Shown here: positions 37,686 through 64,000 of the stretch, piece by piece | Layout: every line of letters begins with the position of its first letter | Numbering within the stretch: the stretch's first letter is position 1 | Source of the DNA: Mycolicibacterium tusciae JS617 | Lineage (GTDB): Bacteria; Actinomycetota; Actinomycetes; Mycobacteriales; Mycobacteriaceae | Assembly: GCF_000243415.2 (NCBI RefSeq) | Contig: NZ_KI912270.1 | Span: 2,294,001 to 2,358,000, forward strand | Direction of reading: 5' to 3' | Length of the DNA: 64,000 nucleotides | Translations under genes and position numbers: made by a program | Notes under the pieces: generated by a model | What the model saw: only the letters and a program-made list of their open reading frames with translations | The model's database searches: none | What the model was told of the DNA's origin: nothing

Positions 37686-37890
37686 GTTCGGAGCGTAACA
37701 ACGGTGAGATCAACGAGACCGCATGTTTTGGCGACTCATCGAGACGTTCGACAGCCCGCCCAAACTGTTTTCACGCGCTTACGCGAGGAAGCGCCACATC
37801 CTACGGTCTTCCAGTAGAGGCCGGACCAACGCGACGACTTCGGGACCGGGTCGGCCCGGCGATAGGTCGGGGCATCGAGCGGTGCGTCAG

Positions 37891-46044: not shown

Positions 46045-48863
46045 TTCTCACCTCCAGCCGGCGGCACGTATACGAAGACGCCGAGGACGTCCGCGCCCGG
46101 TTCTACTGTCACTGTCAGTCCGCGCACCACGTCGGCGGCCGCCTGTCGCACCCGGCGGTGCGATTCGAGCAGGCGTGCGGCGAGCTCTTCGCCGTGTTCG
46201 GCGAGATGTGTGGCGATGTCGGGCACGCCGTCGAGGGCGCGGGTGATGAACTGGGTCGCCTGCGGCGCGGGCACGTTGCCGGACGGTCGGGCGTGCAGCA
46301 GCGGTGCTACCGACTCCGGTGAGAGCCAGTGCGGGGTGCCGGGCGATCCTTTGAAGGCGAGCGACGCGACGTCCTCGGCGACCAGCTGACGACTGCCGGA
46401 CCGGGATGGCAGCTGCAGATGGAAGCGGTAGCGGACGATGAGCAGCGTGGTGCGCATCGACACCGACTTTGTGCGGATGACCGCGCAGCGCCGGGCCGGC
46501 CGCTGATCGTCGGGAAGCTGCGGGTCGAGGGCCGATTCCAGGACGTAGTTGGCGACGGCCTCCACCGATGCGTCGGTACGGGTGAGCACGGCGTCGCCCC
46601 GGGCAACGGGCAGCTCACCGGCAAAGTGCAGGGGGTCCTTGCGGCCGGGCGGCAGCGCGTCACGAAGTCCCAATGGCAATGGCCCGAGCGTCGCGGTGAA
46701 GCCGGAGTCGGCCGTGGTCACCGTTGATCGCAATGCCCGCAGCGCGTGGTCGACGAATTCGGCGACGTCGGTGTTGGTGCCCAGGGTGGCGCGGGTCTCT
46801 TTGAGCTCAGTCTCAACTTCCTGTTGTTTGATGCCGTGCTGGGCGTACTTGGTCTGCGCGTTGCGTTCCCGTGCGGCCGCCGACTCCCATTGGTTGTGCA
46901 GCGCATCGCGCTTTTCCTCCAAGTCGAGTTCCAAACCCAATTGCTCCGCGTCGCGGCCGCGCAGCAGCAGGCCCTCCATAAGTGCCTCGACAACGGCCTC
47001 ACTGTTGTCGGGTACCGGAACCGCGACGCCAGTCGCCTTGCGGATCGCCTCATGTTTGCGAAGCAGGACTTCGAGCACGATCCCGTCGATCTGGTTGTCG
47101 CGGCCATAGAGAGTCACCGCGCGCACCGTGTCGGCCCGTTGGCCGAAACGGTCCACGCGGCCCTCCCGCTGTTCGTGGCGGGTGGGGTTCCACGCCAGGT
47201 CATAGTGGACCACCGCCTGGAAGTTCTCCTGCAGATTGACACCCTCCGAGAGACAGTCGGTGGCTACCAGGGCGTGCTGGCCGGGGATGGCCGCCAGCTC
47301 CTCGATGCGAGCGACTCGTTCAGCTGGGGGCAGGGTGCCTGTTACGGCGCGGACGGTGACGTTCTTGCTCAGAGCCGCACCGAGTTGCTCGGCCACGTAC
47401 TCGGCGGTGTCAATGAATCGGCAGAACACGATGGGGTTGAATCCGTCGCCCAGTAATTCCTTGACGCTCTTGACCAACGCAGTGATCTTGCGATCGGGCT
47501 TGCCTTCGAGTTTGAGAGCTTCAGCCCGGAATGCTTGCAGCCGACGGGATTTGGCATTGCTGGCCTTAGTGGTGCTGTCGGTGTCGGCGCCCGATGTCGT
47601 GTCGACCGCCTCCAGCGCCTCGTCGTCGGTCTGGTCGAGCACGATGGCCCGGCCGATGGCGTCGGCTTCCTCCGGAGAGTCGGCGGCGACCGTCGCCGCC
47701 CGGGTCTGCAGGGTCTGCGCCGCCGCTCGCGGCGACGAGGCCAGCGCGCGCAGGAGCGCCAGCGCCGACCACCAGTTGACCCGCCGAGCCAGCCCGCCTT
47801 CGTCGGTGCGCACCGTTTCCCGGGCGTAGTCGAGGACTTTGGTGAACAACGCGTGGTACTCCGGGCTCAGCGAATAGGGCACCTCAGCGGAGAGGCGATC
47901 CTTCGGGAACGGGGTGTCCTCGTCGAGGTACCGGCGGAGGTCCGCGCGACGGCGCTGCACGAAGTGCCTAGCCAAGTGTTCCCGGTCGGCTTTCTTCTCC
48001 AGGTCGACGGTGGCCAGCTCGGGTTTCAACAGCCCCAGCAAGTTGCGGAATGCCTCGTCCTTCCCGCTGTGGGGGGTGGCACTGGCCAGGATCAGGTGGC
48101 GGGAAGGGTCGGCCGCCAGGTCGCGGACCAATTCATAGCGCTGAGTGCGGCCCGATCCGCTGGTGGTGGAGTCCGCGACGCAAGTGTGCACCTCGTCGAC
48201 GATCACCAGATCCGGGCAGGTGCGGAGGAACTCGTGGCGACGCCGTGCGCTCTTGATGAAGTCGGTGGACACCACGGTGACCGGGTAACGCTCGAAGATC
48301 GACTCCGCGCCGATCAGTCCGCGTTCCAGCCGGCGAACCGTGCTGGGCAGAACGAGTTCCGCTTCGAGACCAAACTTCTCTCTGAGCTCGCCCTGCCACT
48401 GCTCGGCCAGCGCGGGGCTGCACAGCACCGTGAGCCCTCGTGCGTCACCGACCTTCAGCAGCTCGGTGGCAACCAAAGCGGCCTCGATGGTCTTGCCGAT
48501 GCCCACGTCGTCGGCGATCAGCAGGCGCACGACGTCCTGACGGAGCGCCATCATCAGCGGCACCATCTGGTAGGCGCGAGGCTCGACGGCGATCGAGGCC
48601 AGGCTCCGGAATGGGCCTGCGGTGGAGCGGAACCCGATCCGGAGCGAACTGCGTAACAGCGATGCGCTCAGGTGGTCGCCGAGATCCTCCGCGTGCGGCG
48701 GCGGGAACGATGCCGGGCTGACACCCTCGCTGGCGAGCACCCCGGCGATGTCGTCGTCGATGCCGCCGATGGGCCGCAGCACCAGAAAGTCATCTGTGCT
48801 CTCCGGCAGCACCACCCATTCGCGGCCGCGTGCCGTGACCAGATTTCCAGGGGCGAATCCCAC
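46041..48863 (-). CDS. SNF2-family helicase (DISARM DrmD-like)
   Basis: A 940-residue SF2 ATPase of the SNF2/RapA type: DDVGIGKTIEAALVA (Walker A, about 115-130), DEVHTC (Walker B, about 222), SEGVNLQENFQAVVHYD and HEQREGRVDRFGQ (motif VI, about 565). Long coiled-coil stretches follow. DrmD proteins of class 1 DISARM have the same plan and sit beside an adenine methyltransferase. GTG 48863 lies five bases after the previous stop, and its own stop overlaps the methyltransferase start. Confidence 0.87.
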   Translation of the reverse strand: MGFAPGNLVTARGREWVVLPESTDDFLVLRPIGGIDDDIAGVLASEGVSPASFPPPHAEDLGDHLSASLLRSSLRIGFRSTAGPFRSLASIAVEPRAYQMVPLMMALRQDVVRLLIADDVGIGKTIEAALVATELLKVGDARGLTVLCSPALAEQWQGELREKFGLEAELVLPSTVRRLERGLIGAESIFERYPVTVVSTDFIKSARRRHEFLRTCPDLVIVDEVHTCVADSTTSGSGRTQRYELVRDLAADPSRHLILASATPHSGKDEAFRNLLGLLKPELATVDLEKKADREHLARHFVQRRRADLRRYLDEDTPFPKDRLSAEVPYSLSPEYHALFTKVLDYARETVRTDEGGLARRVNWWSALALLRALASSPRAAAQTLQTRAATVAADSPEEADAIGRAIVLDQTDDEALEAVDTTSGADTDSTTKASNAKSRRLQAFRAEALKLEGKPDRKITALVKSVKELLGDGFNPIVFCRFIDTAEYVAEQLGAALSKNVTVRAVTGTLPPAERVARIEELAAIPGQHALVATDCLSEGVNLQENFQAVVHYDLAWNPTRHEQREGRVDRFGQRADTVRAVTLYGRDNQIDGIVLEVLLRKHEAIRKATGVAVPVPDNSEAVVEALMEGLLLRGRDAEQLGLELDLEEKRDALHNQWESAAARERNAQTKYAQHGIKQQEVETELKETRATLGTNTDVAEFVDHALRALRSTVTTADSGFTATLGPLPLGLRDALPPGRKDPLHFAGELPVARGDAVLTRTDASVEAVANYVLESALDPQLPDDQRPARRCAVIRTKSVSMRTTLLIVRYRFHLQLPSRSGSRQLVAEDVASLAFKGSPGTPHWLSPESVAPLLHARPSGNVPAPQATQFITRALDGVPDIATHLAEHGEELAARLLESHRRVRQAAADVVRGLTVTVEPGADVLGVFVYVPPAGGEK

Positions 48864-48868
48864 AGCGC

Positions 48869-51800
48869 CTAAACCCTTCCGTCGCCGAATACGTATGAGT
48901 GCTCGCGCACCTGAGCCAGCCAGTCCTCGCCGGGATGAAGTCTCAGCACCGACCAGCCGGCGTCGTTGAACATTTCCTCGACCTCTTCAGCGTCTGGCGG
49001 GGTGGACTCTTCGACGAACACCGCCAATGCAGATCCGTCGGCAATGAACGCGAAGTCGGGGCGCACCGTTGCCTTTACTACCGATTGCCCGACGTTATCG
49101 GGGAGGGCGAACTCGTGCTGCACCAGCAAGTCGATGAAGGCCCGTTGCAACTCAGATTCACACTGCGCCTTGAGCTCTGACGCCTTGTCGCCGCGGGGCT
49201 CGTCGTCGATGACCGGCAGCGTCGTTGCTTCCGCGAGCCGCAACAACAGGTCGCGGATCACATGCCGGTCGATCACCGCATGGTCGGTCTGGTTGCCGTA
49301 GGACAACAGGCAGTCATAACAAGCCTTCTCGCATCGTTCCCGGGCACCCTCCGCCCGGCCCAGATCGGTGCCGTCGGCACTGAAATGCATGATCTCCAAC
49401 GCGGCGAAGGCGACTCGAGCTAAGGCGTCCGATTCGGTGTGCAGCCGCCGCAACACACCTGCGCCGCCCTCGGCCGACTCGGTGAACAGCATTCGGCCGC
49501 GTCCGTCGTTGTCGGGAAGGGCCTCGCTGGACAATTCGGAGTCCTCAAGCTGGAACTCGGCTTCGATACCGCGTTCCAGCGCGTAGCGCAGGCTTGTGGA
49601 CACGTCCTCGGCGACAAGCGTGTCGAGTCGGACCACGAGGATGTTGCGGGTGTCCTCGACGTAGGGGATCACCTTCTGCTTAGAAGGGACGTCGGCGGCG
49701 TCGTCCAGCGTTTCATCCTGCGGCGTGGTGTCTTCGGCGTCCCGCTCAGAAAGCCAGTTGCCCTTGACGGTGTCGAGCCAGTAGCCGAGGTCTGCCGGAT
49801 GCTTGCGTCGCCGACGGCCGACATTGGTGACGCGCACCGTCGCAGTGTCGCCGTAACTGACGGTCATCAGCCTGCCATCAACATCTCCGACCGCGGCGTC
49901 GGAGCGCCCCAGGCGAGGACCGTGCTCGCTGAACCGGTAGGACGTGTGCAACTCGAAACCCGCTCTGCGGCGTTCTTCCTCATCGCTGGAGATGCGTTCG
50001 CGGCGGCGGGCGAACACCGTCTGCATGCGCATCAGCCCGTACTGCGGCGCGCTCAGCGGTGCCGCGCAGTTCTCGCACACGTCGAGTCCGGGGCGGCGCA
50101 CGTGGTGATAGCCGCACGACTGACAGCGGTAGGCATCTTGAGTGTCGACCGTGCCGATGCCGCCCGAATTCATCGGAACCTGAATGCGCTTAATCTCGTA
50201 GCGGGCGCCTTCGTGGTAAATGATTGCGCCAGGCCCGAATTCGCTGATCGCAAGGAAACGCGGGCGTTGCAGGTAGTCGCCGCCCGCTCGGTTGCCGATC
50301 GTCGGCCGCACGCCCGGAATGTAGGCGGCCAGCGGCAACCGGGGAAAGCTGTACCCGGGCAGGAATCCTTCACTGGCGAAGTAGCGGTAGGTGTAGAAGT
50401 CGGAGTGGGTGCGGTCAGTGTCCTCGTTGCGCAGCAAACGAAGCTGACCCTCGGCCTCACGTCGGCGCCCCTCGGCCGCAGTCCGCGCCTGCTTCCTCAC
50501 CGAGCCGTCCAACACGATCCGGTTCTGCTCGGCCTGATCGTCGAGCGCAGCTTGGTACAGCTCCCGCCACCGCTCGCACGCCCGATCGAACTCATCTGGT
50601 GCAGCCGCGATGACGGTTGCGGGCCAGTCCTTATGCCACCACGACGTACATTGAAGATCCTCGATGAGTGGGGCGATCACCGTGGCGGCCCGTTCAGTTG
50701 CTCGCCGGATCGCATCTGGGTTACGCAGGGTCTTTTCGAGGTCCGAGGTCAACGGCATGGCGGGCGATTCAAGTTCCAGCAGCTGGGGCATCCGCGAGTG
50801 CAGATCGGCGCCGGTCTCGGACAGCCACAGCGCCTGCAGGTGGGAGGCAAGCAGGGCTTCATTGGTTAGGTCAAGGCGCGGTGGGGCGACTGAGCCGGCG
50901 ACCATGTCGACTGAACGCCGGAAGTAATACTGGTCATGCGAATTGCCGGTTGCGCAGTAGGTGGTGACCAGTGCGGGTTGACCCGACCGGCCGGCACGTC
51001 CACTGCGTTGGGCGTAGTTGGCGGGCGTCGGAGGAACATTGCGTAGGGCGACGGCGTTCAGACTCGCGATGTCGACACCGAGCTCCATCGTGGGTGAGCA
51101 GTACAGCACCTTCAATTCGCCTTTGCGGAAGGCCTTTTCACGTTCCTCACGGTCCGCGGCGGTCACCTGGGCGGTGTGTTCGCGGGCGTACATGCCGATG
51201 AGTTCGGGTGCGGTGTGGCGGTAGAGCTCGAGAAAGAAGGGGTTGACCCGGGTGCCCTGATCCGGGTCGAAGCCCTTCCGCAGCGGATCGGGTGCGCCGG
51301 TGACACCGTCACCCCGCTTCCAGATCACCGCCGAGGCCTTCAGCCGGTAGTTCGGTCCCGACAGGCCTTCGACGTCCACGGTTGTGAGAAGACCCGCGCG
51401 GTCAAGAACCTTGAGGAGATCTTCAATCACCTTCTGGGAGTCGGCGGTATCCATCTGCTCGCCGCCGAGGGTGAGCCCGCTGGATTCACGGATGTACCGT
51501 CCCAGCGCGGTCCGACCGGTCAGGCGGGCGATCGACCGCAGGGCGCCCGGCTTACCTCCCTCGGTGGAGACCACCGCTGGCCGGGGCCGAGGCTCGTGGG
51601 GCGGAATCGACCACAGTCCTTGCAGGTGCTGATCTGACTGCCGCTTCACACGATCGAATCCGTCGTCGGTCAGACAGTCGATGGCGACCGCAAGATCGCG
51701 CCGGAACTCGTCAAGAATGATATGGCACAACTCTTTTCGCTGGATGGCGGTGGCGTTGCGCAGCGGTTCATAGGCCTGCTCCCAGAGTGCGGTGTCGGCC

Positions 51801-54010
51801 GCAATTTCGGGGAGCGACTCGTACTCCACGACAAGCAAGCCGGTCTGCTCCAAGTTGGGCATCGTGACCCGCCAGCCGCGTTGAAGGTCGGAGTACAAGC
51901 GGTACTCGATGAACTCCTTGAACGCGCGCTCGGCCGACGACCGGGCGCCGTACACCGCTTCGGGGTTGGCGGCGTAATCCTCGAATCGCAGGCCCAGGCT
52001 CTCGACCGCTCGCTGCGCGACGTCCTCGTGGTGCAGGCTTCCGCTCTGCAATGCCCTGTAGACGGCCCCGCGAAGCTGAACCATCTGGACGAAATCATTG
52101 AAGTGCCCGGCCTGCAAGCTCGCGTCCTGACGGTTGTCGACGAAAGTCAGTAGTTTGCGTGACTCCTCGCTGAGTTCGCCGGGTGGGATCTTGTCCAGCG
52201 AGCGCACTATCGAGGTGCTGAGCACAGAAACCGCGGAGCTTCGGCCTTCGGCATCCAGCGTCGCCAGCTTGGCGAAGTCACTTCCTCGAGCTTGTTCGTA
52301 GGACACCTTGCAGCGCAGGCAGAACCGGAACGGAGCCGGGACGAACGCTGCGTCGATGCCAGCGCCGGTGATCTCGTTACCACCGACGTCGACTCGGACC
52401 CGGCGCGGCAGGTATTGGCGGCGGCGTTCGGCGACTTGCCCGTCAGCCAGCCAAGAGTCAGGCAAGCGCCCCTCCGGAAGCGGGTCCGCCGGCCACGGCT
52501 GATCGGTCGAGATATAGAGGTAGCCGTTGGCTTGGTCTCCCCCGCTGGCGTCGCGGTCACGCCGCGGACGGTAGATCACATCCGAGCCCTCAGAGGACCG
52601 CGCCACCACCAGATACTCCTGACCGCACTCCCGGCAGAAGGCCGACGGCATCAGGATGTGGTCGGGCCGATCGGGCACCGCGATCTGGTACTGCGAGGTG
52701 ATGTGCCGCCGGGCTTCGTTTTCCAGCGACACATACACCGTGTCGCCCTTAGAGACGAACTGGTGCAACCGGAAGGCGAACAGCGGTCGGCCCGTGACCG
52801 GGTGTCTAGCCGCCGAACCAGCCAACAGTGTGGTGCGAATCGCTTGGGCGCACTGATCCACGGTGCGCCCGGTGAGGTCCGCCAGGCGCGCGGCCGAATC
52901 CCGCACTCTGGCCGGCCGCTGCCGAATGACTCGGCCCGAATCCTGTTCGATCGCAAGCCCGAACGTTGTCTCGATCCAGGACGCCAGCGCCGAATCGGCC
53001 AAGCCCTCGTAGTCGCCTGCGGCGCCACCCGCGTGAATTTCTCGGGACAACTGCGCGGTGTCGCCGGGATCGCCAGTGGTTGCATGGTCGAGTGTCTCGC
53101 CGATAACACGGTCAGGGCTGACCGTCGCGCCGAACAGGCCCGTCGCGACTTCGGCGACAACACGACGCTGGTCGGCGTTGGTGCCGCCGCTGGCCATCGT
53201 CGCGGAGGTACCGACACACTGCATGGCCGGTGACTGGCAAGCATCACGTACCCGGCGAACCAGCATGGCGACGTCCGCGCCCTGACGTCCGCGGTAGGTG
53301 TGCAGCTCATCGAGGACCAAGAACTCCAGGCCCTTCGCCGCGTCGACAAGCTTTCGCCGCTCTTCCGGCCGGGTGAGCATCAATTCGAGCATCACGTAGT
53401 TGGTGAGCAGGATGTCGGGTGGATTGCGGAGGATGGCCTCGCGGCGCTCGCCTTGCTCCTGACCGGTATAGCGGGCGAAGGTCACCGGCTCGTTGCTCTC
53501 GCCGTAGCCGAAGCGCAGGAACTTCTCGAGCTCACCAACCTGGCTGTTGGCGAGGGCGTTCATCGGATAGACAATTATGGCCTTAACTCCGGGCTGGCGC
53601 GGCCGTTGGCGGAGCACCCGGTCGACAATCGGGATGATGTAGGCCAGTGACTTCCCGGAGCCGGTGCCAGTGGTGAGCACGTAGCTCTTTCTGGAGCGCG
53701 CAGTCTCGATGGCCTCGCGCTGGTGGCGGTGCAGGGTGATCGGCCGGTCGCCAGGGTCCGATAGGTTTGACTTCGGGCGGAAGATCTTGGCGCATTCGGG
53801 GTGCAGCAGGTCGTCGGCGACCAGTTCGTCAATGGAGCCGCCGGAGGCGAAAGTCGGGTTCAGCGAGAGCCACGGCTCGGGCCATTGCTTGCCCTCGGCG
53901 AGCTCGTCGTCGACGTACTGCTTGATCCGAGGGTCCCGCGGGACGACCGCGCTGGTGGTGAAGGACTTGTAGTCGTCGATCAGCTCCTGATGGACCCGAA
54001 AGATGTCCAC
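48869..54010 (-). CDS. giant DEAD/DEAH helicase with zinc sites and DUF1998 (DrmA/DrmB-like fusion)
   Basis: A 1713-residue protein. Helicase core: TTGTGSGKSLAYIIP (about 108-122), LDELHTYRGRQGAD (about 234), SPTMELGVDIASLN (about 975) and QRSGRAGRSGQ (about 1000). Several Cys pairs (FCRECG, FCLRCK; CQSCGYHH and CENCAAP near 1300) and the DUF1998 element CEKACYDCLLSYGNQ (about 1558) follow. The last ~100 residues (RPDFAFIADGSALAVFVEES) look like a degenerate PD-(D/E)xK fold. DISARM encodes DrmA helicase and DrmB DUF1998 as separate genes; here both are one chain. GTG 54010 is chosen for its GAGGAGAG site; GTG 54040 lacks one. Confidence 0.83.
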   Translation of the reverse strand: MDIFRVHQELIDDYKSFTTSAVVPRDPRIKQYVDDELAEGKQWPEPWLSLNPTFASGGSIDELVADDLLHPECAKIFRPKSNLSDPGDRPITLHRHQREAIETARSRKSYVLTTGTGSGKSLAYIIPIVDRVLRQRPRQPGVKAIIVYPMNALANSQVGELEKFLRFGYGESNEPVTFARYTGQEQGERREAILRNPPDILLTNYVMLELMLTRPEERRKLVDAAKGLEFLVLDELHTYRGRQGADVAMLVRRVRDACQSPAMQCVGTSATMASGGTNADQRRVVAEVATGLFGATVSPDRVIGETLDHATTGDPGDTAQLSREIHAGGAAGDYEGLADSALASWIETTFGLAIEQDSGRVIRQRPARVRDSAARLADLTGRTVDQCAQAIRTTLLAGSAARHPVTGRPLFAFRLHQFVSKGDTVYVSLENEARRHITSQYQIAVPDRPDHILMPSAFCRECGQEYLVVARSSEGSDVIYRPRRDRDASGGDQANGYLYISTDQPWPADPLPEGRLPDSWLADGQVAERRRQYLPRRVRVDVGGNEITGAGIDAAFVPAPFRFCLRCKVSYEQARGSDFAKLATLDAEGRSSAVSVLSTSIVRSLDKIPPGELSEESRKLLTFVDNRQDASLQAGHFNDFVQMVQLRGAVYRALQSGSLHHEDVAQRAVESLGLRFEDYAANPEAVYGARSSAERAFKEFIEYRLYSDLQRGWRVTMPNLEQTGLLVVEYESLPEIAADTALWEQAYEPLRNATAIQRKELCHIILDEFRRDLAVAIDCLTDDGFDRVKRQSDQHLQGLWSIPPHEPRPRPAVVSTEGGKPGALRSIARLTGRTALGRYIRESSGLTLGGEQMDTADSQKVIEDLLKVLDRAGLLTTVDVEGLSGPNYRLKASAVIWKRGDGVTGAPDPLRKGFDPDQGTRVNPFFLELYRHTAPELIGMYAREHTAQVTAADREEREKAFRKGELKVLYCSPTMELGVDIASLNAVALRNVPPTPANYAQRSGRAGRSGQPALVTTYCATGNSHDQYYFRRSVDMVAGSVAPPRLDLTNEALLASHLQALWLSETGADLHSRMPQLLELESPAMPLTSDLEKTLRNPDAIRRATERAATVIAPLIEDLQCTSWWHKDWPATVIAAAPDEFDRACERWRELYQAALDDQAEQNRIVLDGSVRKQARTAAEGRRREAEGQLRLLRNEDTDRTHSDFYTYRYFASEGFLPGYSFPRLPLAAYIPGVRPTIGNRAGGDYLQRPRFLAISEFGPGAIIYHEGARYEIKRIQVPMNSGGIGTVDTQDAYRCQSCGYHHVRRPGLDVCENCAAPLSAPQYGLMRMQTVFARRRERISSDEEERRRAGFELHTSYRFSEHGPRLGRSDAAVGDVDGRLMTVSYGDTATVRVTNVGRRRRKHPADLGYWLDTVKGNWLSERDAEDTTPQDETLDDAADVPSKQKVIPYVEDTRNILVVRLDTLVAEDVSTSLRYALERGIEAEFQLEDSELSSEALPDNDGRGRMLFTESAEGGAGVLRRLHTESDALARVAFAALEIMHFSADGTDLGRAEGARERCEKACYDCLLSYGNQTDHAVIDRHVIRDLLLRLAEATTLPVIDDEPRGDKASELKAQCESELQRAFIDLLVQHEFALPDNVGQSVVKATVRPDFAFIADGSALAVFVEESTPPDAEEVEEMFNDAGWSVLRLHPGEDWLAQVREHSYVFGDGRV

Positions 54011-54247
54011 ACAACTCTCCTCCCCAGGCGCACCCCCCACAGCCGCATCCAGTCACCCCTGCCTGCCCGAGGCCGATCGCTACATGTCCCTGACCGAAGG
54101 GTCACGTCGAACATACCGGCGGCTAGTCGCCTTCGGGCCCGTCTTTGCCACTGCTCCCGCTGCCACTTCTTGGTCATCTGGTTGGCTATGGGTCCTGGGT
54201 GGGTTCGAGCCGTCGGAGTAGTGCGGTGAGTGCACTGGTGCTTCCCT
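54011..54247. promoter_or_regulatory. promoter region of the defence operon
   Basis: A 237-base gap between the recombinase stop and the first gene of the six-gene operon. Transcription must start here or in the recombinase gene. No hairpin or clear -10/-35 pair can be singled out. Confidence 0.4.
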
Positions 54248-54811
54248 TCAGGCCACGGCGTCGGCAGCCAGGTACCGGTAAACCGTGGCGCGGGACACGC
54301 CGAGCATCTTCGCGATGTCGGTGGCGGTGATCCCCTTGCCCCGCAGACTGCGAGCCTTCGCGGCGTCAGCATCGTCGACCTTCCGTGGGCGTCCGCCCTT
54401 GCGACCGTTGGCCGCCGCTGCTGCTAGTCCCGCACGGGTGCGCTCGATCATGGTGTCGCGTTCGAGTTGAGCAAAGGCCGCCATGATGGTGAGCATCGCC
54501 TTCCCCATCGGACCGTTGGTGTGCAGGCCCTCGGTGATGCTGCGGAAGCCGATGCCGCGTGATGTCAGTTCGTCGACTACTGCGAGTACCTGTTGAGTAT
54601 TGCGCCCAAGCCGGTCGAGCTTCCAGACGGTTAGAACATCCCCTTCGCGGAGGTGGTCAAGGCAGGCGTCGAGTTGCGGACGGCTAGCGGTCGACCCGCT
54701 GATGCCTTGGTCGGTGAAGATACGGGCGGCACCGGCGTGCTTGAGAGCGTCGAGCTGCAGCCGGGGGTTCTGATCTGTCGTCGACACCCTCGCGTAGCCA
54801 ATGATGGCCAT
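54248..54811 (-). CDS. serine recombinase, TnpR/Hin resolvase-invertase family
   Basis: A 187-residue small serine recombinase: GYARVST with catalytic Ser10, LDRLGRNTQQVL, the conserved E helix GKAMLTIMAAFAQLERDTMIERTRAGL, and a C-terminal HTH (GITATDIAKMLGVSRATVYRYLA). It would cut and rejoin DNA at a short inverted-repeat site. No transposase lies nearby, and its upstream region holds res-like repeats, so it may be a resolution module, a transposon remnant, or a switch for flanking defence genes. Confidence 0.92.
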   Translation of the reverse strand: MAIIGYARVSTTDQNPRLQLDALKHAGAARIFTDQGISGSTASRPQLDACLDHLREGDVLTVWKLDRLGRNTQQVLAVVDELTSRGIGFRSITEGLHTNGPMGKAMLTIMAAFAQLERDTMIERTRAGLAAAAANGRKGGRPRKVDDADAAKARSLRGKGITATDIAKMLGVSRATVYRYLAADAVA

Positions 54812-55335: not shown

Positions 55336-57699
55336 GTGGACGTTAGCGACTATTTGGATCGCCGGTACTCTCTGGACCGAGCGATGGTCACAGAGGTTCA
55401 GTTACAGACAGATCGCGCGCTCGAAACCCTCCTCAAGACAAACCTTGGACAAGATGGGTGGCCATACTCTCTTACCGATGGCAACAGTCTCCAACGGGAT
55501 GAATTCTCGGAAAGCACTGCAGCGATGATTTTGCACGCAGTCGCGGTCGAGTACGGCGTAATTACCGATAGCGTTCTTGTCCCGCGAACTCAATCTGGCA
55601 TGGTCCGAACTGGCGATGGGAAGAAACGTAAACCAGAGGCCGTCTCTAAGCTGCTCCGCGACGGAGAGACCGTCAGTAAGCTGCTCCGCGACGGAACGAC
55701 AGCTCTTATAAAAGATTTTCCGAACGGCGACTATCTAACTTCTTCGAAGACGTGGGGGCACGATAGCCCGCTTACGTTGACGTGGGTTTATGAGCTACTC
55801 AAAGCAAATGTTACCGATGACACACAAGTTGGGCCCGTGCTCGCGCGGATCGCAACGCTAGCCGACCAGTGGATAAAGGTGCTTATCGACGATCCAGCAT
55901 CCATGGTGCTGAAATTCACACCGAACGGCGATGATTACCCAATTCCACACACATTTGTCCTCTTGCGAGCCTTGCAACTAACACAAGCCGTTCGCCCCGA
56001 ACGTCTTGCCGAATTGCAGTTGAAAAAGCTCCCCTCGGTCTTTCTCAACCAACTCCACACCGAGCTTTCTAACAGCGCAATACAAGATGGAGGGTTTGAT
56101 CCTGCTTGTCTAGTATTCGCGCTCGAAGGTTTATTGATCCTCAATCGCGATGCCATCACGGATTCTCTTTTGCAGCAAGTGGTCGACATCCTTGGTAAGG
56201 CACCCGCTGTCGTGACACACTGGCAACCAGTACGTCCTCTGGTTGTGAATAAGCGAGGGTTCACCCTTCTTCCTCAAAGTGTTGAAGTTGCTAATTCGTA
56301 TCTCCGAATTTGCGGCTTCGAGGAAGATAAGCGGAGGATTTCGCCGGAGCCACTGTTTACACGCAGCTTTGCCGCTCTACAGTCATACGCGGATTGGCTC
56401 TTGTCGCGGGTATATACCGTTCACATCGATATTGAAGCGAACGCTGCAGAGCTTCAAGGCTGGCAATCCGAGCACACGTATAAACCAGACATCCTGCACC
56501 TGTGGGCTACAAGTCAAGTTGTGCTGTTTTTGCAAGCTTACGGCGCGATGTTACAGCAACACATCGCCCACGCGGCGGGGGTAGCTGTGAATCTCGACTT
56601 CCGCCGCAAACAGAAGAAGTCGCCAAAAGAGGCTTCAGACGCGTGGGAGAAAGCAAAGCAGAAACGTGAGCCGCTACTAGGATTAACTGGCGCCTTTCAG
56701 GCGTACAACCGCGTCGACACACTAGTGGTGGCGCCGCGTAACGACACGTCCGGCGGCTCTCCATCATCATCGGCAAAGTACTCGATCCTTCTCTATGGAC
56801 CTCCCGGGACGGGGAAAACGTCGTTTTGCGAATCTCTCGCGGCAGCACTGCAGTACGACTTCGTATACGTATCGCCGAGCGATTTCATTCGCGGAGGCGA
56901 AGCTGGAGTCGAAGATCGGGCCAAACGCGTGTTTGAAGCGCTGCTTGAACAGTCCAACTGTGTAATACTTTTGGACGAAGTTGATCGGCTTCTTCTAGAT
57001 CGAGACAGCGTCGAGTACGCCCGCCAAGGCGATATGTTCCAATTTATGACGCCAAGCATGTTGACCAAGATTAATGATCTTCGGCAAAAGGAAACTTCCG
57101 TGTTAGTGATCGCGACCAACTACGCGGAACGTATCGACAGCGCCATCAAGCGACCGGGCCGCATCGACGAACAGATTGCGTTACTTCCTCCAAATCGTGA
57201 ACGGCGCGTGGAGATTATCATTGACTGCGCTAAAGATGTTGGGGTGACCTTCGACAGTACTGATATAGACGAAATTGCGAACAGGACGTCTCTCTACATC
57301 TACAAAGAACTCGAATATATTGTGCAGGCTGTAGCAAATAGAGGGTCGGGCACGTCCGAAAGCGAAGCAATCACCGAGATATTGGAGCAATTTGGCTCTC
57401 CAACTATCTCGTTGGAAAGTTACAACGGGAGGTTCCACCGGGCTGATGTTGTTGAGACCGACGGAGACCAAATTGATCCCGACTCGGGAAGTGACAAGTG
57501 GGTTCTCAAAGACCTTTTAAGCACGCCTTGGAAAGAGTTTGCTCTGTTGGCATACTTGCAGGCCGAGACGGACCCAGGAAATATTCCAGACTGGGCAGAA
57601 CCAGTACTCAAGGATATCTCGAACAGGCCTAAGTTCTTTAACCAGCTCGGTCCTATTATCTCGCCGTGGCTTAGAAGCTACGTCGACTCGCTGAGTTGA
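55336..57699 (+). CDS. AAA+ ATPase with long N-terminal domain
   Basis: A 787-residue protein. A ~430-residue N-terminal helical region of unknown family precedes an AAA+ module: YGPPGTGKTSF (Walker A, 487-497), VILLDEVDR (Walker B, about 542-550), VIATNYAERIDSAIKRPGRIDEQ (sensor 1 and arginine finger), then a small lid domain. It is closest in style to FtsH/Cdc48-type remodellers, without a protease. GTG 55336 follows GGGAGGA. Codon use is clearly AT-richer than the backbone. It converges on, and overlaps by 22 bases, the ATP-grasp gene; I suspect a joint function. Confidence 0.82.
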   Translation: MDVSDYLDRRYSLDRAMVTEVQLQTDRALETLLKTNLGQDGWPYSLTDGNSLQRDEFSESTAAMILHAVAVEYGVITDSVLVPRTQSGMVRTGDGKKRKPEAVSKLLRDGETVSKLLRDGTTALIKDFPNGDYLTSSKTWGHDSPLTLTWVYELLKANVTDDTQVGPVLARIATLADQWIKVLIDDPASMVLKFTPNGDDYPIPHTFVLLRALQLTQAVRPERLAELQLKKLPSVFLNQLHTELSNSAIQDGGFDPACLVFALEGLLILNRDAITDSLLQQVVDILGKAPAVVTHWQPVRPLVVNKRGFTLLPQSVEVANSYLRICGFEEDKRRISPEPLFTRSFAALQSYADWLLSRVYTVHIDIEANAAELQGWQSEHTYKPDILHLWATSQVVLFLQAYGAMLQQHIAHAAGVAVNLDFRRKQKKSPKEASDAWEKAKQKREPLLGLTGAFQAYNRVDTLVVAPRNDTSGGSPSSSAKYSILLYGPPGTGKTSFCESLAAALQYDFVYVSPSDFIRGGEAGVEDRAKRVFEALLEQSNCVILLDEVDRLLLDRDSVEYARQGDMFQFMTPSMLTKINDLRQKETSVLVIATNYAERIDSAIKRPGRIDEQIALLPPNRERRVEIIIDCAKDVGVTFDSTDIDEIANRTSLYIYKELEYIVQAVANRGSGTSESEAITEILEQFGSPTISLESYNGRFHRADVVETDGDQIDPDSGSDKWVLKDLLSTPWKEFALLAYLQAETDPGNIPDWAEPVLKDISNRPKFFNQLGPIISPWLRSYVDSLS
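55643..55702 (+). repeat. 30-bp in-frame tandem duplication inside the AAA+ gene
   Basis: Two adjacent 30-base units encode VSKLLRDGET and VSKLLRDGTT (about residues 103-122). The units differ at few positions, so this is a fairly recent slippage event that lengthens the N-terminal domain without breaking the frame. Confidence 0.85.
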
Positions 57700-59090
57700 G
57701 AACCATCATCGGGCGCTACGCTTCGGTCTGGAATTGGCGAGCGCTGCCTGATAGGTACCAAGGAATTCGATAGTAGTTCTCCGACATGAGACGTGATCCC
57801 AAAGTCGCCGACAATTTCAACTCCTTGGTGTTCTTCCTCAGCCTTCGCTAGGACACCACGCAGCGCTTCCAGCCCGTCACTTGTGTTGTACATCACCCAG
57901 GTAGCCGGATCGGTCCCCGCGCGAAGCACAGTAGTGGCGCCGGCAACCGCTTTGGCTCGATGCATTTGGAGAATCCAAACTTTCGCGCCGTCGTGAACCC
58001 ATTCAATCCGTACAACCCCGAGCTGCTTCCGGAGATCAGCAGTCACTTTTCGGACGTCCTCGATGATCTCTTGCGGTAGGGGCTCAGGAATATCTTTTCC
58101 CAGCATAAAGTCGTCGCCACGACCGGCGACACCTTCTACAATATCGATTTTGGAATTGTTGGCCGCTTTCGTAGCGCCGCTATAAGCCCCATTGACGCCT
58201 TCTTGAGCCAAAACAGATGCGACGATATGTTGCTCGCTGTCCTCATCGTTGAGAACTCGGAAGGGATCCGTCCAACCATATGTAGTCGTATACATTCCCG
58301 GCACCGGCTCTTTTGGAGCAGTCCGCATCCACCACTCGCCTGTCCCGGTCCGCCGACCAAATGAAAACGGGGCAACGTTTCTGGAAACCACCGTTGTGAA
58401 CGGCACGTTGTGCCCCAAAGCGTCGGCGAGAATTAATCCAAATGCTTTGTCGCCAATAAAGCGACTGAATCGGTTGGGCCAGACGATTTCAGAGCCGAAC
58501 TGGCCAGCAGCGTAATCGGACACCTCCCAGACAATTGCGTGTTCCCCCCGAGTTCCACACCGACGCGGATGGAGACTGAACTCCAACCTTGTGTTGAGAA
58601 GGTCACCAAAGTCGATGTCGAAACCGTAAATCGCCTGAAGTACATCGAATCCAATTTCGATGGGGAGTCTTGCTATGCCAGGCTTCTCGACTGCTCGGGG
58701 CGTGTCGCCGGGTGCAAATTCTACGATCCCCCCCGCCGCGACTCCAGATACTCCGCCGTCGTTGATATCGATTGTTTCATTGGCGATCGTGTACAAGCCT
58801 GAACGGGCAAGTTCGCGAATCAGTGCGGCGGCGTCATCCGCGTTCGAGATCCCATAGTGGAATGGGTTACCCGACGCGCGCGCTGCCGAGAACGATCGAA
58901 TGTTGATTGAGCCGCTTGTGCTGACTTGTATGAGATACGCAAGAACGTCTTCGAGAGCACCATCCAAACGGCTCGAGTCACGCACCGCGTGGTGTCGGAT
59001 CGTCGGGTCGCCGTCGCTGAAGCTGACAAATTGTGCCACGTTGTAGCTGCAGGCCAAATTAGCGAGGACATCATCCTTCAGATTCGTCAT
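57678..59090 (-). CDS. PEP-synthase/PPDK-like ATP-grasp domain protein
   Basis: A 470-residue protein. RFIGDKAFGLILADALGHNVPFTTVV resembles the IGGKgasLgel...VPpgFvv opening of PEP/pyruvate-binding (PPDK_N) ATP-grasp domains, and IDIVEGVAGRGDDFMLG with VRIEWVHDGAKVWILQMHRAKA (about 362-383) resembles the closing lobe that ends in ..QaRP. The phosphohistidine and PEP/TIM-barrel domains are absent, so it is not a full dikinase; it may phosphorylate or ligate another substrate. ATG 59090 overlaps the upstream stop as ATGA. Its last 22 bases overlap the convergent AAA+ gene. Confidence 0.6.
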   Translation of the reverse strand: MTNLKDDVLANLACSYNVAQFVSFSDGDPTIRHHAVRDSSRLDGALEDVLAYLIQVSTSGSINIRSFSAARASGNPFHYGISNADDAAALIRELARSGLYTIANETIDINDGGVSGVAAGGIVEFAPGDTPRAVEKPGIARLPIEIGFDVLQAIYGFDIDFGDLLNTRLEFSLHPRRCGTRGEHAIVWEVSDYAAGQFGSEIVWPNRFSRFIGDKAFGLILADALGHNVPFTTVVSRNVAPFSFGRRTGTGEWWMRTAPKEPVPGMYTTTYGWTDPFRVLNDEDSEQHIVASVLAQEGVNGAYSGATKAANNSKIDIVEGVAGRGDDFMLGKDIPEPLPQEIIEDVRKVTADLRKQLGVVRIEWVHDGAKVWILQMHRAKAVAGATTVLRAGTDPATWVMYNTSDGLEALRGVLAKAEEEHQGVEIVGDFGITSHVGELLSNSLVPIRQRSPIPDRSVAPDDGSQLSEST

Positions 59091-59713
59091 GAGCCCTGCT
59101 CCCGTTCACGCGCAGTCGTCGATATCGCTTGCTCGATGATGTGGCGCGCGGTCAACAACCCGCTGACCGCATGCCCCTCGTCTCGAAGCCGCCCGATCGC
59201 CTGTTCCGTCAACATAAGTGCGACGTTAGGCGGTAGCACCGACAAGTTTGCATCCAACGAAGTGGCCTCGGCATTCACCGCGGCGGCGTACTCCCTACAG
59301 CACCCCGTGCTGTACTCCCAGCCATCGTTGAACACCACGACGCCGACGTAGTCGGTGATGAGACGGGTCCAGAAGGCGTGAAAGTCGTCTTGGGTCCAGA
59401 AAGGCACATCAAGGCGGGTCGGATCGACGACCGTCTTATCGAAGCGACGCCGCACCGTGGCCACAAGTGCTTGGGCAGATGCTGTGTTTTTCGCGATTAC
59501 TTCGCGCGCGTGAGCCTGTCCGTACTCTGCCCCCGAATCGGGTAGGTACCCAGAGGCCAGGAGCCAGTCGTAAAAGCGTCTGCCCGTCGTAATCGGTGTA
59601 CTCACGTACATGACGCCCTTGCGTTCGAGTCCCAGACAGGCTCCGAACGAATCCAGCACGTCAGCCAGCCGGCTCGCGGATCCCAACAGGTCCGCTTCCG
59701 CCGCAGTCGACAA
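59087..59713 (-). CDS. nucleoside 2-deoxyribosyltransferase-like (DUF4406-like) protein
   Basis: From TTG 59713 (GAAGGGA just upstream) the product is 208 residues; a GTG at 59845 adds 44 Arg-rich residues that look like shadow coding. MYVSTPITTGRRFYDWLL (about 35-52) and VVVFNDGWEYSTGCCREY (about 125-142) match the first strand and the D-G-W-x3-x-G-C..E strand of the nucleoside deoxyribosyltransferase/DUF4406 fold, which cleaves or transfers N-glycosidic bonds. It is translationally coupled to the ATP-grasp gene. A nucleotide-cleaving toxin or signal-processing role is inference. Confidence 0.55.
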   Translation of the reverse strand: MSTAAEADLLGSASRLADVLDSFGACLGLERKGVMYVSTPITTGRRFYDWLLASGYLPDSGAEYGQAHAREVIAKNTASAQALVATVRRRFDKTVVDPTRLDVPFWTQDDFHAFWTRLITDYVGVVVFNDGWEYSTGCCREYAAAVNAEATSLDANLSVLPPNVALMLTEQAIGRLRDEGHAVSGLLTARHIIEQAISTTAREREQGS

Positions 59714-61515: not shown

Positions 61516-62079
61516 TCATGCCGGACGGCGTCGGATGGTGCGCCGTTTGGTCGGGCCATCGACGGTGTCGTGCGAATCCGCCGAGATCTCTGGGTCGATT
61601 GGTGATTGAATGTCTTGACGTATTTCTTCGAGCGCTCCACTACTGCCGCTGCATTCCAGCGTTGCCTGCGATCGGCGAAAGGCTTCGCGCGAACCGCCTT
61701 CGAGCACCAAGATGCGGTCGAATATCTGCTCGTACGGCTTGGGCGGTCCGAGTTCTACCTCAACGGCGTTCTTCGCCGCCAGGCCGGCCCGGTCGAGAGC
61801 GTCTCGAATCGCTGCAAGCTTGACGGAATCAGCCACGTTGCCGTCGGTCGCCATCCTCAACAGTTCGCAAGCCATTCGGTCGGCCGCCTCCTCAATGCGT
61901 TGCCGCGCTTTGCGCTTCACCTGAGGCGCCTTGGCGCCATGAAAGTCGCACACACTTGTTCCGCGGCGGGCAGCGTTCTTGCACTGGTCGCCGTTCTTCC
62001 TGTGCGCAGTGCATCGCCGCTCGGGGTGGGCACTTCGTGCCCACCGGTCGATAGGTTCGCGGTTCGATAGGTCAGTCAT
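61516..62079 (-). CDS. zinc-finger protein resembling phage terminase small subunit-associated proteins
   Basis: A 187-residue protein with an N-terminal Cys/His site C23-x9-C33-x10-C44-x2-H47 in RCTAHRKNGDQCKN and VCDFHGAKAPQV, a motif frequent in actinophage and satellite small-terminase-type or HGG-motif proteins. A helical region with EVELGPPKPYEQIFDRILVLE follows. ATG 62079 has AAGGAGG upstream; the longer frame from 62175 is rejected. It suggests the island derives from, or exploits, phage packaging. Confidence 0.65.
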   Translation of the reverse strand: MTDLSNREPIDRWARSAHPERRCTAHRKNGDQCKNAARRGTSVCDFHGAKAPQVKRKARQRIEEAADRMACELLRMATDGNVADSVKLAAIRDALDRAGLAAKNAVEVELGPPKPYEQIFDRILVLEGGSREAFRRSQATLECSGSSGALEEIRQDIQSPIDPEISADSHDTVDGPTKRRTIRRRPA

Positions 62080-62226
62080 TGTGGCCTCCTTCGGCAAGAC
62101 TTCCGCGAGTTCGCAACTCCACCTGAATGGACACCGGAGAGTTCCGCTGGCGCGATCAGCAGAAGCTCGAAGCATCTAAATCGCTTTGCCACCGAATACC
62201 TTCGAGAACGAGTCAGGAAGGTCGAG

Positions 62227-62246
62227 GTGTACAGCGTGTACCGAAT
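62227..62246. repeat. GTAC iterons, left pair
   Basis: GTGTACAGC followed by GTGTACCGA: two 9-base direct repeats with GTAC at 62229 and 62238. The same GTAC phase of nine recurs at 62353. Confidence 0.6.
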
Positions 62247-62352
62247 CCATGGTTTGGCTAATCCACCCTGGAGGTGACTCGCACGCGATTGACAATTTCC
62301 CTTTTGACCTGGTGAAGGGGGCCAGGCGGGTTGCACAATCTTATGCCCACAC

Positions 62353-62380
62353 GTACACGTAGTACACCGTGTACACGGTG
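62353..62380. repeat. GTACACNNN iterons and 16-bp palindrome
   Basis: Three tandem 9-mers (GTACACGTA, GTACACCGT, GTACACGGT) start at 62353, 62362 and 62371. The last two form the perfect palindrome CACCGTGTACACGGTG (62365-62380). It lies 25 bases after the primase-polymerase stop, in a spacer of about 325 bases that has no gene. It may be an origin, a Rep/Xis binding array or an operator. Confidence 0.7.
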
Positions 62381-62404
62381 ATAGCCGTCTGCCTAGTCCC
62401 ATAT

Positions 62405-63189
62405 TCATTGGTTACCAACGCCTTCCCCGGCCAGCCGCAGCAAGAAACCGCACGGGCCGCTGTTCTCTGACGGCAGCTTGTCGATGCGGCCGGTGTCGAC
62501 CAATAACTCCTCAGCCTTGTCAAATAGGAGGCGGTCGCGTTGGTGGATCGTCTTTCGTAACATGCTGCGAGAGAGCTCCCCTCCGTTGGCTTTCAACTTG
62601 CGCTCGATGTTGTGAGCGACTCGCTGTATCCGCTCCGCTTCCTCGCTCTGCACCACTTCGGTCTTGGCGATCTCGCGGATACCGTCCGCGCGGCCACGGG
62701 TCGCGTTCTCCGCGTAAACCTTCGAGCGCAATACATCAGCCACGCGACCGCGAGTTAGGTCAGATATGGCCATCACAATCCCAGCGAGCGACCAATCATC
62801 TTGGTTGATCTCATCCGTTCGGCCATCTAGCCACATCAATGCAGCCGCAACTTTCAAACGGCAAAGCAGCCGATGACCGTCCAGTGGGTCAACCTCGCCG
62901 CCGCGCAGCATTTCAACGCGGTGAGAGTCCACTGCCCGCCTTGCATCATCGGGCACCCCCAAAACCTGCAGTTCGATATCCGACACTCGAGCGTCGAGCA
63001 GACTTGGAGAAGACCCGCGGGCGGCAGCCCGTTGCTTTGGCCAGGCACCGAGGTGTCGCGGGGCAGGCAACTCCGGTAGGTCATTTGGCGCTTCAACGTC
63101 GCTGGTGGGCAACCACACGAAGCGCTGAGGTGTACCGCCATCAACATCGTCGAGCAGTGGCTTACCGCGACTGTCGCCTGCCAGGAGCA
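62405..63189 (-). pseudogene. 3' fragment of a primase-polymerase/helicase gene cut by an IS21 element
   Basis: The ~260 codons read GDSRGKPLLDDVDGGTPQRFVWLPTSD, then LDGHRLLCRLKVAAALMWLDGR and DDWSLAGIVMAISDLTRGRVAD, matching the C-terminal third of bifunctional primase/polymerase (PrimPol-AAA) proteins of actinobacterial plasmids and integrative elements. The N-terminal polymerase and ATPase parts are missing because IS21-like terminal DNA begins at about 63190. A hybrid frame continues to an ATG at 63283 inside the IS, so a truncated protein might still be made. Confidence 0.78.
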
Positions 63190-64000
63190 TGGGACCAGCG
63201 TGAGCTGATTTTGCCAGGGTGATGGGACCACCTGGATTGCCAGTTATGGGACCACCGGCGCGTCGCGTCGGTGGTCCCTTCATCTGTTCGTTTGATCGCC
63301 GTGACGGTTCAAGTCACGGAGGCGGCGGGCATGGCTTTTCGGGAGGTCAGTGTGAACGAGATCAGGGAAGTGCTGCGGGTGTGGCTGGGGGTCGCCGGGT
63401 TGCCGGCACCGGGTTACCGCACGATTGCCGCGCATTGCGGCGTGGACCGCAAAACGGTGCGCCGCTACGTCGAGGCCGCGCAGGCGGCTGGTTTGCGCCG
63501 TAGCGACAGCGTCGAGGCTGTCGATGACGGGTTGATCGGGGCGGTCGCCGACGCGGTGCGCCCAGTACGCCCGGATGGTCACGGCGCGGCGTGGGAACAG
63601 TTGGTGGGGTTCGAGCAGCAGATCACCGCGTGGGTAGCCGGCGACGGTGAACAACGTCCGTTGACGATCACCAAGATCCACACCCTGCTGGCTCGCCAAG
63701 GCTGCCTGGTGCCGTATCGCACGTTGAACCGATTCGCCGGTGAGCGTTGCGGTTTCGGTGCCAAGGACACCACGGTGCGGGTCACCGATGGGGATCCCGG
63801 GGTGGAATGCCAGATCGATTTCGGCTACCTGGGGATGCTCACCGATGCCGATGATGGGCGGCGCCGCAAGGTGCACGCGTTGATCTTCACCGCCGTCTAC
63901 TCCCGGCACATGTTCGTGTGGCTGTCCTACTCCCAAACCCTGGCGGCGGTGATCGCCGGCTCTGAGGCGGCGTGGGGATTTCTTCGGCGGCGTGTTCGCG
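63190..64000 (+). mobile_element. IS21-family insertion sequence, left part
   Basis: The end carries repeated TGGGACCA blocks (about 63190, 63233 and 63247; the third followed by an inverted GGTGGTCCC near 63270) like the multiple terminal repeats bound by IstA. The istA gene starts inside. The right end and istB lie outside the window. The exact left boundary is inferred from where primase-polymerase similarity stops. Confidence 0.75.
63331..64000 (+). CDS. istA: IS21-family transposase IstA, 5' part
   Basis: Runs off the right edge; 223 codons are visible. MAFREVSVNEIREVLRVWLG and YRTIAAHCGVDRKTVRRYVEAA form the N-terminal HTH. The DDE catalytic core begins with VECQIDFGYLGML (first Asp), and RKVHALIFTAVYSRHMFVWLSYSQ follows. 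GGAGG lies eight bases before ATG 63331; GTG 63352 is an alternative. The frame is intact as far as seen. Confidence 0.9.
   Translation, partial: MAFREVSVNEIREVLRVWLGVAGLPAPGYRTIAAHCGVDRKTVRRYVEAAQAAGLRRSDSVEAVDDGLIGAVADAVRPVRPDGHGAAWEQLVGFEQQITAWVAGDGEQRPLTITKIHTLLARQGCLVPYRTLNRFAGERCGFGAKDTTVRVTDGDPGVECQIDFGYLGMLTDADDGRRRKVHALIFTAVYSRHMFVWLSYSQTLAAVIAGSEAAWGFLRRRVR

What the first reader, a model, noticed from the sequence alone, without database searches (positions are those of the whole stretch)
55336..59713. Three-gene cassette: AAA+ ATPase, PEP-synthase-like ATP-grasp protein and deoxyribosyltransferase-like protein
Seen: an AAA+ gene (plus strand) converges with 22 bases of overlap on a two-gene leftward unit coupled by ATGA. 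Known: PPDK_N-type ATP-grasp domains phosphorylate small substrates, and the deoxyribosyltransferase/DUF4406 fold acts on N-glycosidic bonds of nucleotides. Inference: a defence system in which an AAA+ sensor controls a nucleotide-modifying pair. It lies in an island full of antiphage genes, and I know no named system with this trio.
Basis: partly seen in the sequence, partly recalled or inferred. Interest (0 to 1): 0.85.

Follow-up and report, generated by a model that had tools for sequence, protein, structure and literature searches.

The report
Candidate three-gene nucleotide defence cassette
Three neighbouring genes in a mycobacterial defence island, an AAA+ machine plus two nucleotide-type enzymes, recur together in unrelated bacteria as one unit and may form an undescribed virus-defence system built around an unusually small relative of PEP synthase.

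Summary
The cassette is real and is one unit. The AAA+ gene (787 aa) overlaps the middle gene by 22 bases; the other two genes share ATGA. The 208-aa protein is of a DUF4406/deoxyribosyltransferase-like family. The 470-aa protein is a compact dikinase: PPDK/PEP-synthase-type ATP-grasp plus a short catalytic-His segment (TSH), no PEP barrel. Its ATP-site residues and H435 are invariant in 122 of 122 rows.

Both enzymes occur together at 30 distinct loci, fused at 11. The third gene is this AAA+ at 16 and a membrane-type protein at 7, never both; 4 of the 7 match Pycsar TM effectors (E 2.3e-08 or better). But 66 of 103 dikinase locus ids lack the deoxyribosyltransferase; many carry dGTPase or adenylosuccinate-synthetase/HD/DUF7002 genes instead.

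Best reading: the enzyme pair makes or controls a nucleotide-derived ligand, and the exchangeable third protein is the effector. Defence and chemistry are inferred; nothing was tested in cells. Rivals: nucleotide depletion, or ordinary nucleotide metabolism. Ten paper searches listed no description of the trio.

The parts
55336..57699 (+). AAA+ ATPase, 787 aa: ~460-aa helical N-terminal region of unknown family + classical AAA module (Walker A GPPGTGK, Walker B DEVD, sensor ATNY, R606/R609)
   Evidence: same family at 16 of 30 enzyme-pair loci
55336..56736 (+). N-terminal region of the AAA+ protein (first row of alignment A5)
   Evidence: of 53 proteins found by residues 1-460, 51 carry a precomputed AAA domain and 2 shorter ones none; only weak Pfam matches (best E 0.0044) and PDB sequence matches (best E 1.1); helical in the model
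57678..59090 (-). compact dikinase, 470 aa: N-terminal domain of unknown fold, PPDK/PEP-synthase-type ATP-grasp, short catalytic-His segment
   Evidence: no Pfam, PADLOC or NCBIfam match up to E 1
57951..58478 (-). ATP-grasp part of the dikinase, about residues 205-380 (K215, R256, E363, Q375)
   Evidence: each 122 of 122 rows; fold match
57786..57794 (-). T433-S434-H435, aligned with the catalytic TSH/TCH of PPDK/PEP synthase
   Evidence: hhalign; S434 and H435 122 of 122, T433 116 of 122; TSH in 120 of 120 listed relatives
59087..59713 (-). DUF4406/deoxyribosyltransferase-like protein, 208 aa, TTG start (longest ORF reaches 59845)
59291..59293 (-). Glu141, candidate catalytic glutamate in the S.G...E motif
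   Evidence: 30 of 30 in alignment A7; catalytic role recalled for the deoxyribosyltransferase superfamily, not tested
57678..57699 (.). 22-base convergent overlap of AAA+ and dikinase genes
59087..59090 (-). ATGA stop/start overlap coupling the two minus-strand genes

Best explanation
The three genes are one system. SHOWN by comparison: the deoxyribosyltransferase-like protein and the compact dikinase form a pair (adjacent or fused at 29 of 30 loci); the dikinase keeps the ATP-site residues and the catalytic-His motif of PEP synthase/PPDK but lacks their PEP/pyruvate barrel; the third gene is exchangeable between one AAA+ family and membrane-type proteins, some of them Pycsar-TM-like. INFERRED: the dikinase takes phosphate from ATP through H435 and passes it to a nucleotide-derived acceptor made or cleaved by the deoxyribosyltransferase-like protein (Glu141). 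The product is a small ligand that activates, or keeps quiet until infection, the third protein. In the window that effector would be the AAA+ unfoldase, acting on host or phage proteins when the ligand level changes; in relatives it would be a membrane pore. The purpose is most likely abortive anti-phage defence. Sign of the signal (activating or inhibiting), substrate and trigger are not known.
For: Pairing: 30 distinct loci carry both enzymes, 11 as one ORF, plus 4 fused metagenome proteins. In a 396-genome phylum sample 3 of 3 deoxyribosyltransferase hits, own genome included, lie beside a dikinase. Third gene: AAA+ at 16 of 30 (one cut by a contig end), membrane-type protein at 7, neither at 7 (two of those on contigs of about 4 kb), both at 0. 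Full-length AAA+ at 0 of 66 locus ids without the deoxyribosyltransferase. Reciprocal searches with the AAA+ N-terminus: 3 of 3 viral-contig hits are on contigs already found with the dikinase, and 2 of 2 hits in 394 class genomes, own included, are cassettes. All 4 T1 membrane proteins match PADLOC PycTM (E 2.3e-11 to 2.3e-08) and, more weakly, CBASS 2TM effectors; outside the pair locus of G214, itself a row of the T1 model, no T1 hit was found in 296 genomes. Orientation varies (AAA+ convergent in 4 mycobacterial loci, upstream and co-directional in 12) while adjacency stays. Rare and patchy: dikinase in 5 of 396 phylum and 4 of 396 genus genomes, own included. Catalytic residues invariant. 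In another branch the dikinase sits with a dGTPase-like gene; the one scanned matches PADLOC's dGTPase (1e-67). Clover is a published dGTPase plus signal-enzyme pair (PMC12265719, abstract and passages seen).
Against: No phage assay exists. The dikinase family is not tied to the other two genes: 66 of 103 locus ids lack the deoxyribosyltransferase. T1 and T2 were recognised by looking at the neighbours of these same loci, so their counts (4 and 3) have no independent test. The three T2 proteins match no PADLOC model and the L038 one is only weakly hydrophobic. Seven of 30 loci have neither AAA+ nor a recognised membrane protein; at L011 an 826-aa gene separates the pair. The dikinase also lies in phage contigs without any recognised partner and a deoxyribosyltransferase-like protein in an actinophage contig, which fits plain nucleotide metabolism. 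PADLOC found nothing for DUF7002, the PurA fusion, the YfbR-like or the PfkB-fused proteins. Foldseek ranks ATP-grasp ligases before PPDK. In dGTPase loci the nucleotide enzyme itself looks like the effector; by analogy the deoxyribosyltransferase could be too.
Confidence: 0.4

Rival explanations
1. Nucleotide depletion. The enzyme pair itself is the toxic effector: the dikinase turns ATP to AMP and the deoxyribosyltransferase-like enzyme cleaves the nucleotide (or NAD+) at its N-glycosidic bond. AAA+ or membrane protein senses infection and releases the pair.
For: The recognisable alternative partners of the dikinase are nucleotide enzymes: dGTPase-like, YfbR-like HD, adenylosuccinate-synthetase-like; DUF7002 is of unknown function. 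Retron-Eco1 uses a nucleoside-deoxyribosyltransferase-like effector, and a cited title calls its filaments NAD+-hydrolysing (PMC12887533, two passages seen).
Against: A PycTM-like protein is an effector, not a sensor, in its known setting (recalled). Why a phosphotransfer His would be kept for mere ATP burning is unclear. Phage contigs carry the dikinase.
Confidence: 0.25
2. Nucleotide salvage or base modification. The pair makes an unusual nucleotide for DNA, RNA or metabolism, and AAA+ is an accessory; no defence role.
For: Phage contigs carry the dikinase, in L086 and L088 among genes that read like a replication module; a QueC-like gene and a PfkB-deoxyribosyltransferase fusion lie near some dGTPase-type loci (QueC paper PMC13329287, one passage seen).
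Against: Rarity and patchiness, the window's defence-island setting, exchange of AAA+ for PycTM-like proteins. Island setting was not tested for the other loci.
Confidence: 0.2
3. Unrelated neighbours brought together by the island.
For: Convergent AAA+ gene; defence islands collect genes.
Against: Same trio in Actinomycetota, Bacteroidota, Pseudomonadota, Planctomycetota and Myxococcota (labels) with changed orientation; fusions; reciprocal hits.
Confidence: 0.01

Closest known systems
Pyruvate phosphate dikinase / PEP synthase / rifampin phosphotransferase family
   Different: No PEP/pyruvate barrel, very short His segment, N-terminal domain with invariant N104/E105/D111/G112/G113/E170/H174; Pfam PPDK_N not detected in 30 members
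DUF4406 / nucleoside 2-deoxyribosyltransferase superfamily
   Same: Pfam DUF4406 in 25 of 30 members at E <= 1; Foldseek matches to phage deoxyribosyltransferases, e.g. target TM-score 0.72 at E 9.2e-03
   Different: Fused or coupled to a dikinase; window member itself below Pfam detection; no profile match to the PfkB-linked deoxyribosyltransferases (prob 2.1)
Pycsar (cyclase + TM effector)
   Same: PycTM-like protein as third gene at 4 related loci
   Different: No cyclase recognised; a deoxyribosyltransferase-dikinase pair sits in its place; no T1 protein in the window's genome
Clover (CloA dGTPase + CloB nucleotidyltransferase)
   Same: dGTPase-like gene beside a second enzyme in one class of dikinase loci
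   Different: Partner is a dikinase, not a Pol-beta nucleotidyltransferase; the window cassette has no dGTPase
IetAS and CBASS/TRIP13 AAA+ proteins
   Same: AAA module matches IetA (4e-20) and TRIP13 (1.8e-14) models
   Different: Matches are confined to the AAA module; different N-terminus; the cassette partners match no protease or HORMA model

Membership tests
PPDK/PEP-synthase-type dikinases | ATP-grasp domain of PPDK_N type | tested here: met
PPDK/PEP-synthase-type dikinases | catalytic His in a T-S/C-H loop | tested here: met
   TSH aligned with the T-C/S-H loop of 13 actinobacterial relatives; H435 122 of 122; phosphorylation itself untested
PPDK/PEP-synthase-type dikinases | C-terminal PEP/pyruvate-binding barrel | tested here: not met
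   the protein ends 15-46 residues after TSH in 120 of 120 listed relatives, 35 in the window
DUF4406/deoxyribosyltransferase superfamily | family profile | tested here: met
   25 of 30 members at E <= 1, best 2.4e-07; the window's own protein had no match
DUF4406/deoxyribosyltransferase superfamily | glutamate in the C-terminal S.G...E motif | tested here: met
   30 of 30
Classical AAA ATPases | Walker A/B, sensor 1, arginine fingers | tested here: met
IetAS | subtilase partner IetS | tested here: not met
   the two cassette partners have no protease match
Pycsar | PycTM effector | tested here: not met
   no match among the three cassette proteins, none in the window's genome with the T1 profile; present at 4 related loci
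Pycsar | uridylate/cytidylate cyclase | tested here: not met
   neither enzyme of the window pair matches a PADLOC model
Clover | dGTPase with Pol-beta nucleotidyltransferase | tested here: not met
   none of the three cassette proteins matches a dGTPase or nucleotidyltransferase model
Anti-phage defence system (any) | measured phage protection | not testable with these tools
   no assay

The most novel reading that the evidence does not exclude
A compact dikinase family is a hitherto unseen signal-making (or signal-quenching) enzyme of prokaryotic immunity. It uses phosphohistidine transfer instead of a nucleotidyltransferase or cyclase, works with a deoxyribosyltransferase to make a new kind of phosphorylated sugar or nucleotide messenger, and is shared by several systems with exchangeable effectors: AAA+, PycTM-like pores, and in other branches dGTPase or HD/PurA/DUF7002 sets.
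Probability: 0.25. Interest if true: 0.93.

Novelty: new variant of a known kind. Interest (0 to 1): 0.72.

Why it matters
If right, nucleotide-signal immunity would gain an enzyme class not looked for so far, a dikinase with a phosphohistidine step, and one enzyme family would link several defence-like gene sets across about ten phyla or more (labels). Invariant residues, natural fusions and swappable third genes make it directly testable. It also points to a family of at least 1828 proteins (only 8000 candidates scored) in which Pfam found nothing in the 30 members tested.

Tried and rejected
Rejected: chance neighbourhood. Rejected: the 470-aa protein as a plain PPDK_N domain, since it also has the His loop. 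Rejected: IetAS, Pycsar or Clover membership (see membership rows).

Led nowhere: hhalign of the DUF4406 family against PfkB-linked deoxyribosyltransferases (prob 2.1). PDB sequence searches with the three profiles. A fold for the AAA+ N-terminal region: both fold lists are filled by the AAA module, so it remains untested alone. DUF4406 search in 21 genomes (own and relatives): 0 of 21. Dikinase in 50,697 phage records: none; in 72,556 plasmid records: 13, all of rhizobia-type or Methylobacterium hosts. Papers: ten searches; no listed paper describes the trio by title or abstract. One search listed only 20 of 1,093 papers. PMC4678834 (nucleotide-centric conflict systems) is not held and was not read; in the main text of DefensePredictor (PMC13092281) dikinase, DUF4406, ATP-grasp and deoxyribosyl occur 0 times. 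Two reviews were probed for passages only (PMC7824862, PMC9503650) without a relevant mention.

Limits: PADLOC is a 2023 copy. The structural model of the enzyme pair is of a fused relative (P0081, 49% identical to the window dikinase), not of the window proteins. The PEP-synthase set for hhalign was 13 of 30 loci chosen by having a GGK/GNK-type and a T[SC]HA motif, which favours canonical members; that E-value is for one pair only. The genome scan kept the best 80 of 98 loci and used two short peptide patterns. Context labels mean presence within the fetched stretch (up to 10 kb each side); labels other than deoxyribosyltransferase, AAA+, T1 and T2 could not be set for ids fetched. Some loci are near copies (L022/L035, L091/L092). 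The 122 rows hold 121 different strings, 4 rows repeating another wholly. The tree dropped 1 of 93 rows (L079) and is a quick tree with 25 of 88 inner branches weak.

Full report
OBSERVATION. The AAA+ gene 55336-57699 (+) overlaps the dikinase gene 57678-59090 (-) by 22 bases; dikinase and deoxyribosyltransferase-like genes share ATGA. The third gene most likely starts at TTG 59713 (208 aa; P0121). The AAA+ start GTG 55336 follows gggagga. No tRNA gene was found in the window.

The 208-aa protein: no own match in Pfam, PADLOC or NCBIfam, but 25 of 30 family members match DUF4406 at E <= 1, best 2.4e-07. The fusion model matches phage nucleoside deoxyribosyltransferases in BFVD (for example A0A8S5T3R7, E 9.2e-03, target TM-score 0.72, rmsd 3.5). 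Ten columns (Y, T, G, N, P, W, W, S, G, E) are invariant in 30 of 30.

ONE UNIT. A genome scan (80 loci), a viral-contig scan (11 loci) and genome searches gave 103 locus ids. Third gene: AAA+ at 16 of 30 (L003 cut by the contig end), T1 membrane protein at 4, T2 at 3, neither at 7 (L017 and L048 sit on contigs of about 4 kb), both at 0. T1 and T2 profiles were built from these same loci, so those counts define the groups rather than test them. Of 66 ids without the deoxyribosyltransferase, 0 have the full-length AAA+ and 1 has a weak generic AAA hit (L059). The AAA+ gene is convergent in 4 mycobacterial loci (window included) and upstream, co-directional in 12. In three mycobacterial relatives the trio is shared with the window but, apart from a distant resolvase match in one, nothing else from position 34000 on. 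Nocardioides endophyticus has dikinase and AAA+ under neighbouring locus tags 35920/35930.

RECIPROCAL TESTS (own genome counted). Deoxyribosyltransferase-like: 3 of 396 genomes, all three with the dikinase beside it. AAA+ N-terminus: 2 of 394, both cassettes; viral contigs 3 of 3. T1: 1 of 296, the pair locus of G214 that is itself a row of the profile. Dikinase: 5 of 396 in the phylum sample and 4 of 396 in the genus sample; two of the five phylum hits lack the deoxyribosyltransferase, one on a 3.4-kb contig and one a fragment. So the genes are rare and patchy.

EXCHANGE OF PARTNERS. All four T1 proteins match PADLOC PycTM (E 2.3e-11, 4.8e-09, 2.8e-09, 2.3e-08) and more weakly CBASS 2TM effectors (best 1.1e-05); the three T2 proteins match nothing in PADLOC and one is only weakly hydrophobic. 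Where the deoxyribosyltransferase is missing, 28 ids have adenylosuccinate-synthetase-like (PF00709 4.6e-55 for the one scanned), YfbR-like HD and/or DUF7002 genes, and 24 have a dGTPase-like gene (PADLOC dGTPase 1e-67 for the one scanned), 9 of these with a PfkB-deoxyribosyltransferase fusion and 7 of the 9 also with a QueC-like gene; 14 have none of these. On a quick tree of 92 dikinases the context labels need 21 changes against 53.9 for shuffled labels; the AAA+ type alone needs 7, of which well-supported branches force 4. So context is inherited but has been switched repeatedly. Phage contigs L086 and L088 carry the dikinase among genes that read like helicase, primase and SSB (read from sequence, not scanned).

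HOW IT PROBABLY WORKS. The dikinase has what it needs to take a phosphate from ATP through a histidine, and lacks the part that makes PEP. Its often fused partner belongs to a superfamily that acts on N-glycosidic bonds (recalled). The constant pair with a swappable third protein, one form of which is Pycsar-TM-like, resembles signal-enzyme plus effector defence. Clover shows that a dGTPase can be ruled by a ligand made by its partner enzyme (PMC12265719, abstract and passages seen), which parallels the dGTPase branch here. I therefore favour a ligand-controlled effector (0.4), with depletion by the pair itself (0.25) and non-defence nucleotide chemistry (0.2) as live rivals. The AAA+ is then more likely effector than sensor; this rests on the exchange pattern alone.

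NOVELTY. No library used here names the dikinase, and ten paper searches listed no description of the trio. The open-access library lacks most subscription papers and listings were capped, so prior description cannot be excluded. I rate it a new variant of a known kind (nucleotide-signal defence), with a bolder reading in the section on the most novel reading.

Noticed in passing
window 42163-54040: Three large minus-strand genes with DrmMI/type IIG-, DpdE- (1040 bits) and DruE-like (340 bits) matches: a mixed Druantia/DISARM/Dpd-like set close to the cassette.
   Followed up: partly
window 36342-41353: ApeA N-terminal/HEPN protein (36342-37685) and an AAA_5 protein, McrB-like by my reading (39068-41353), in the same island.
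   Followed up: no
window 54248-54811: Serine resolvase gene just upstream of the cassette; a distant resolvase (34%) also lies near the cassette in L003.
   Followed up: no
window 61516-63283: Phage-like genes: HGGxSTG/phrog_3678-type protein and a phage polymerase/primase C-terminal-like protein.
   Followed up: no
L006:11359-14270 and 27 other ids: Set beside the dikinase, mostly in Alphaproteobacteria: DUF7002, P-loop kinase fused to adenylosuccinate synthetase, YfbR-like HD protein (not all three at every locus); the search for DUF7002 found no paper.
   Followed up: partly
L060:11398-17122 and 6 other loci: dGTPase-like gene plus dikinase next to QueC-like, PfkB-deoxyribosyltransferase and other genes; the QueC/PfkB link is noted in PMC13329287 (passage).
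   Followed up: partly
L107:7941-8600: An actinophage-like contig carries a DUF4406-family protein without the dikinase within the fetched stretch.
   Followed up: no
L086, L088, L089, L090, L092: Viral contigs carry the dikinase without any recognised partner; possible phage nucleotide enzyme or counter-defence copy.
   Followed up: no
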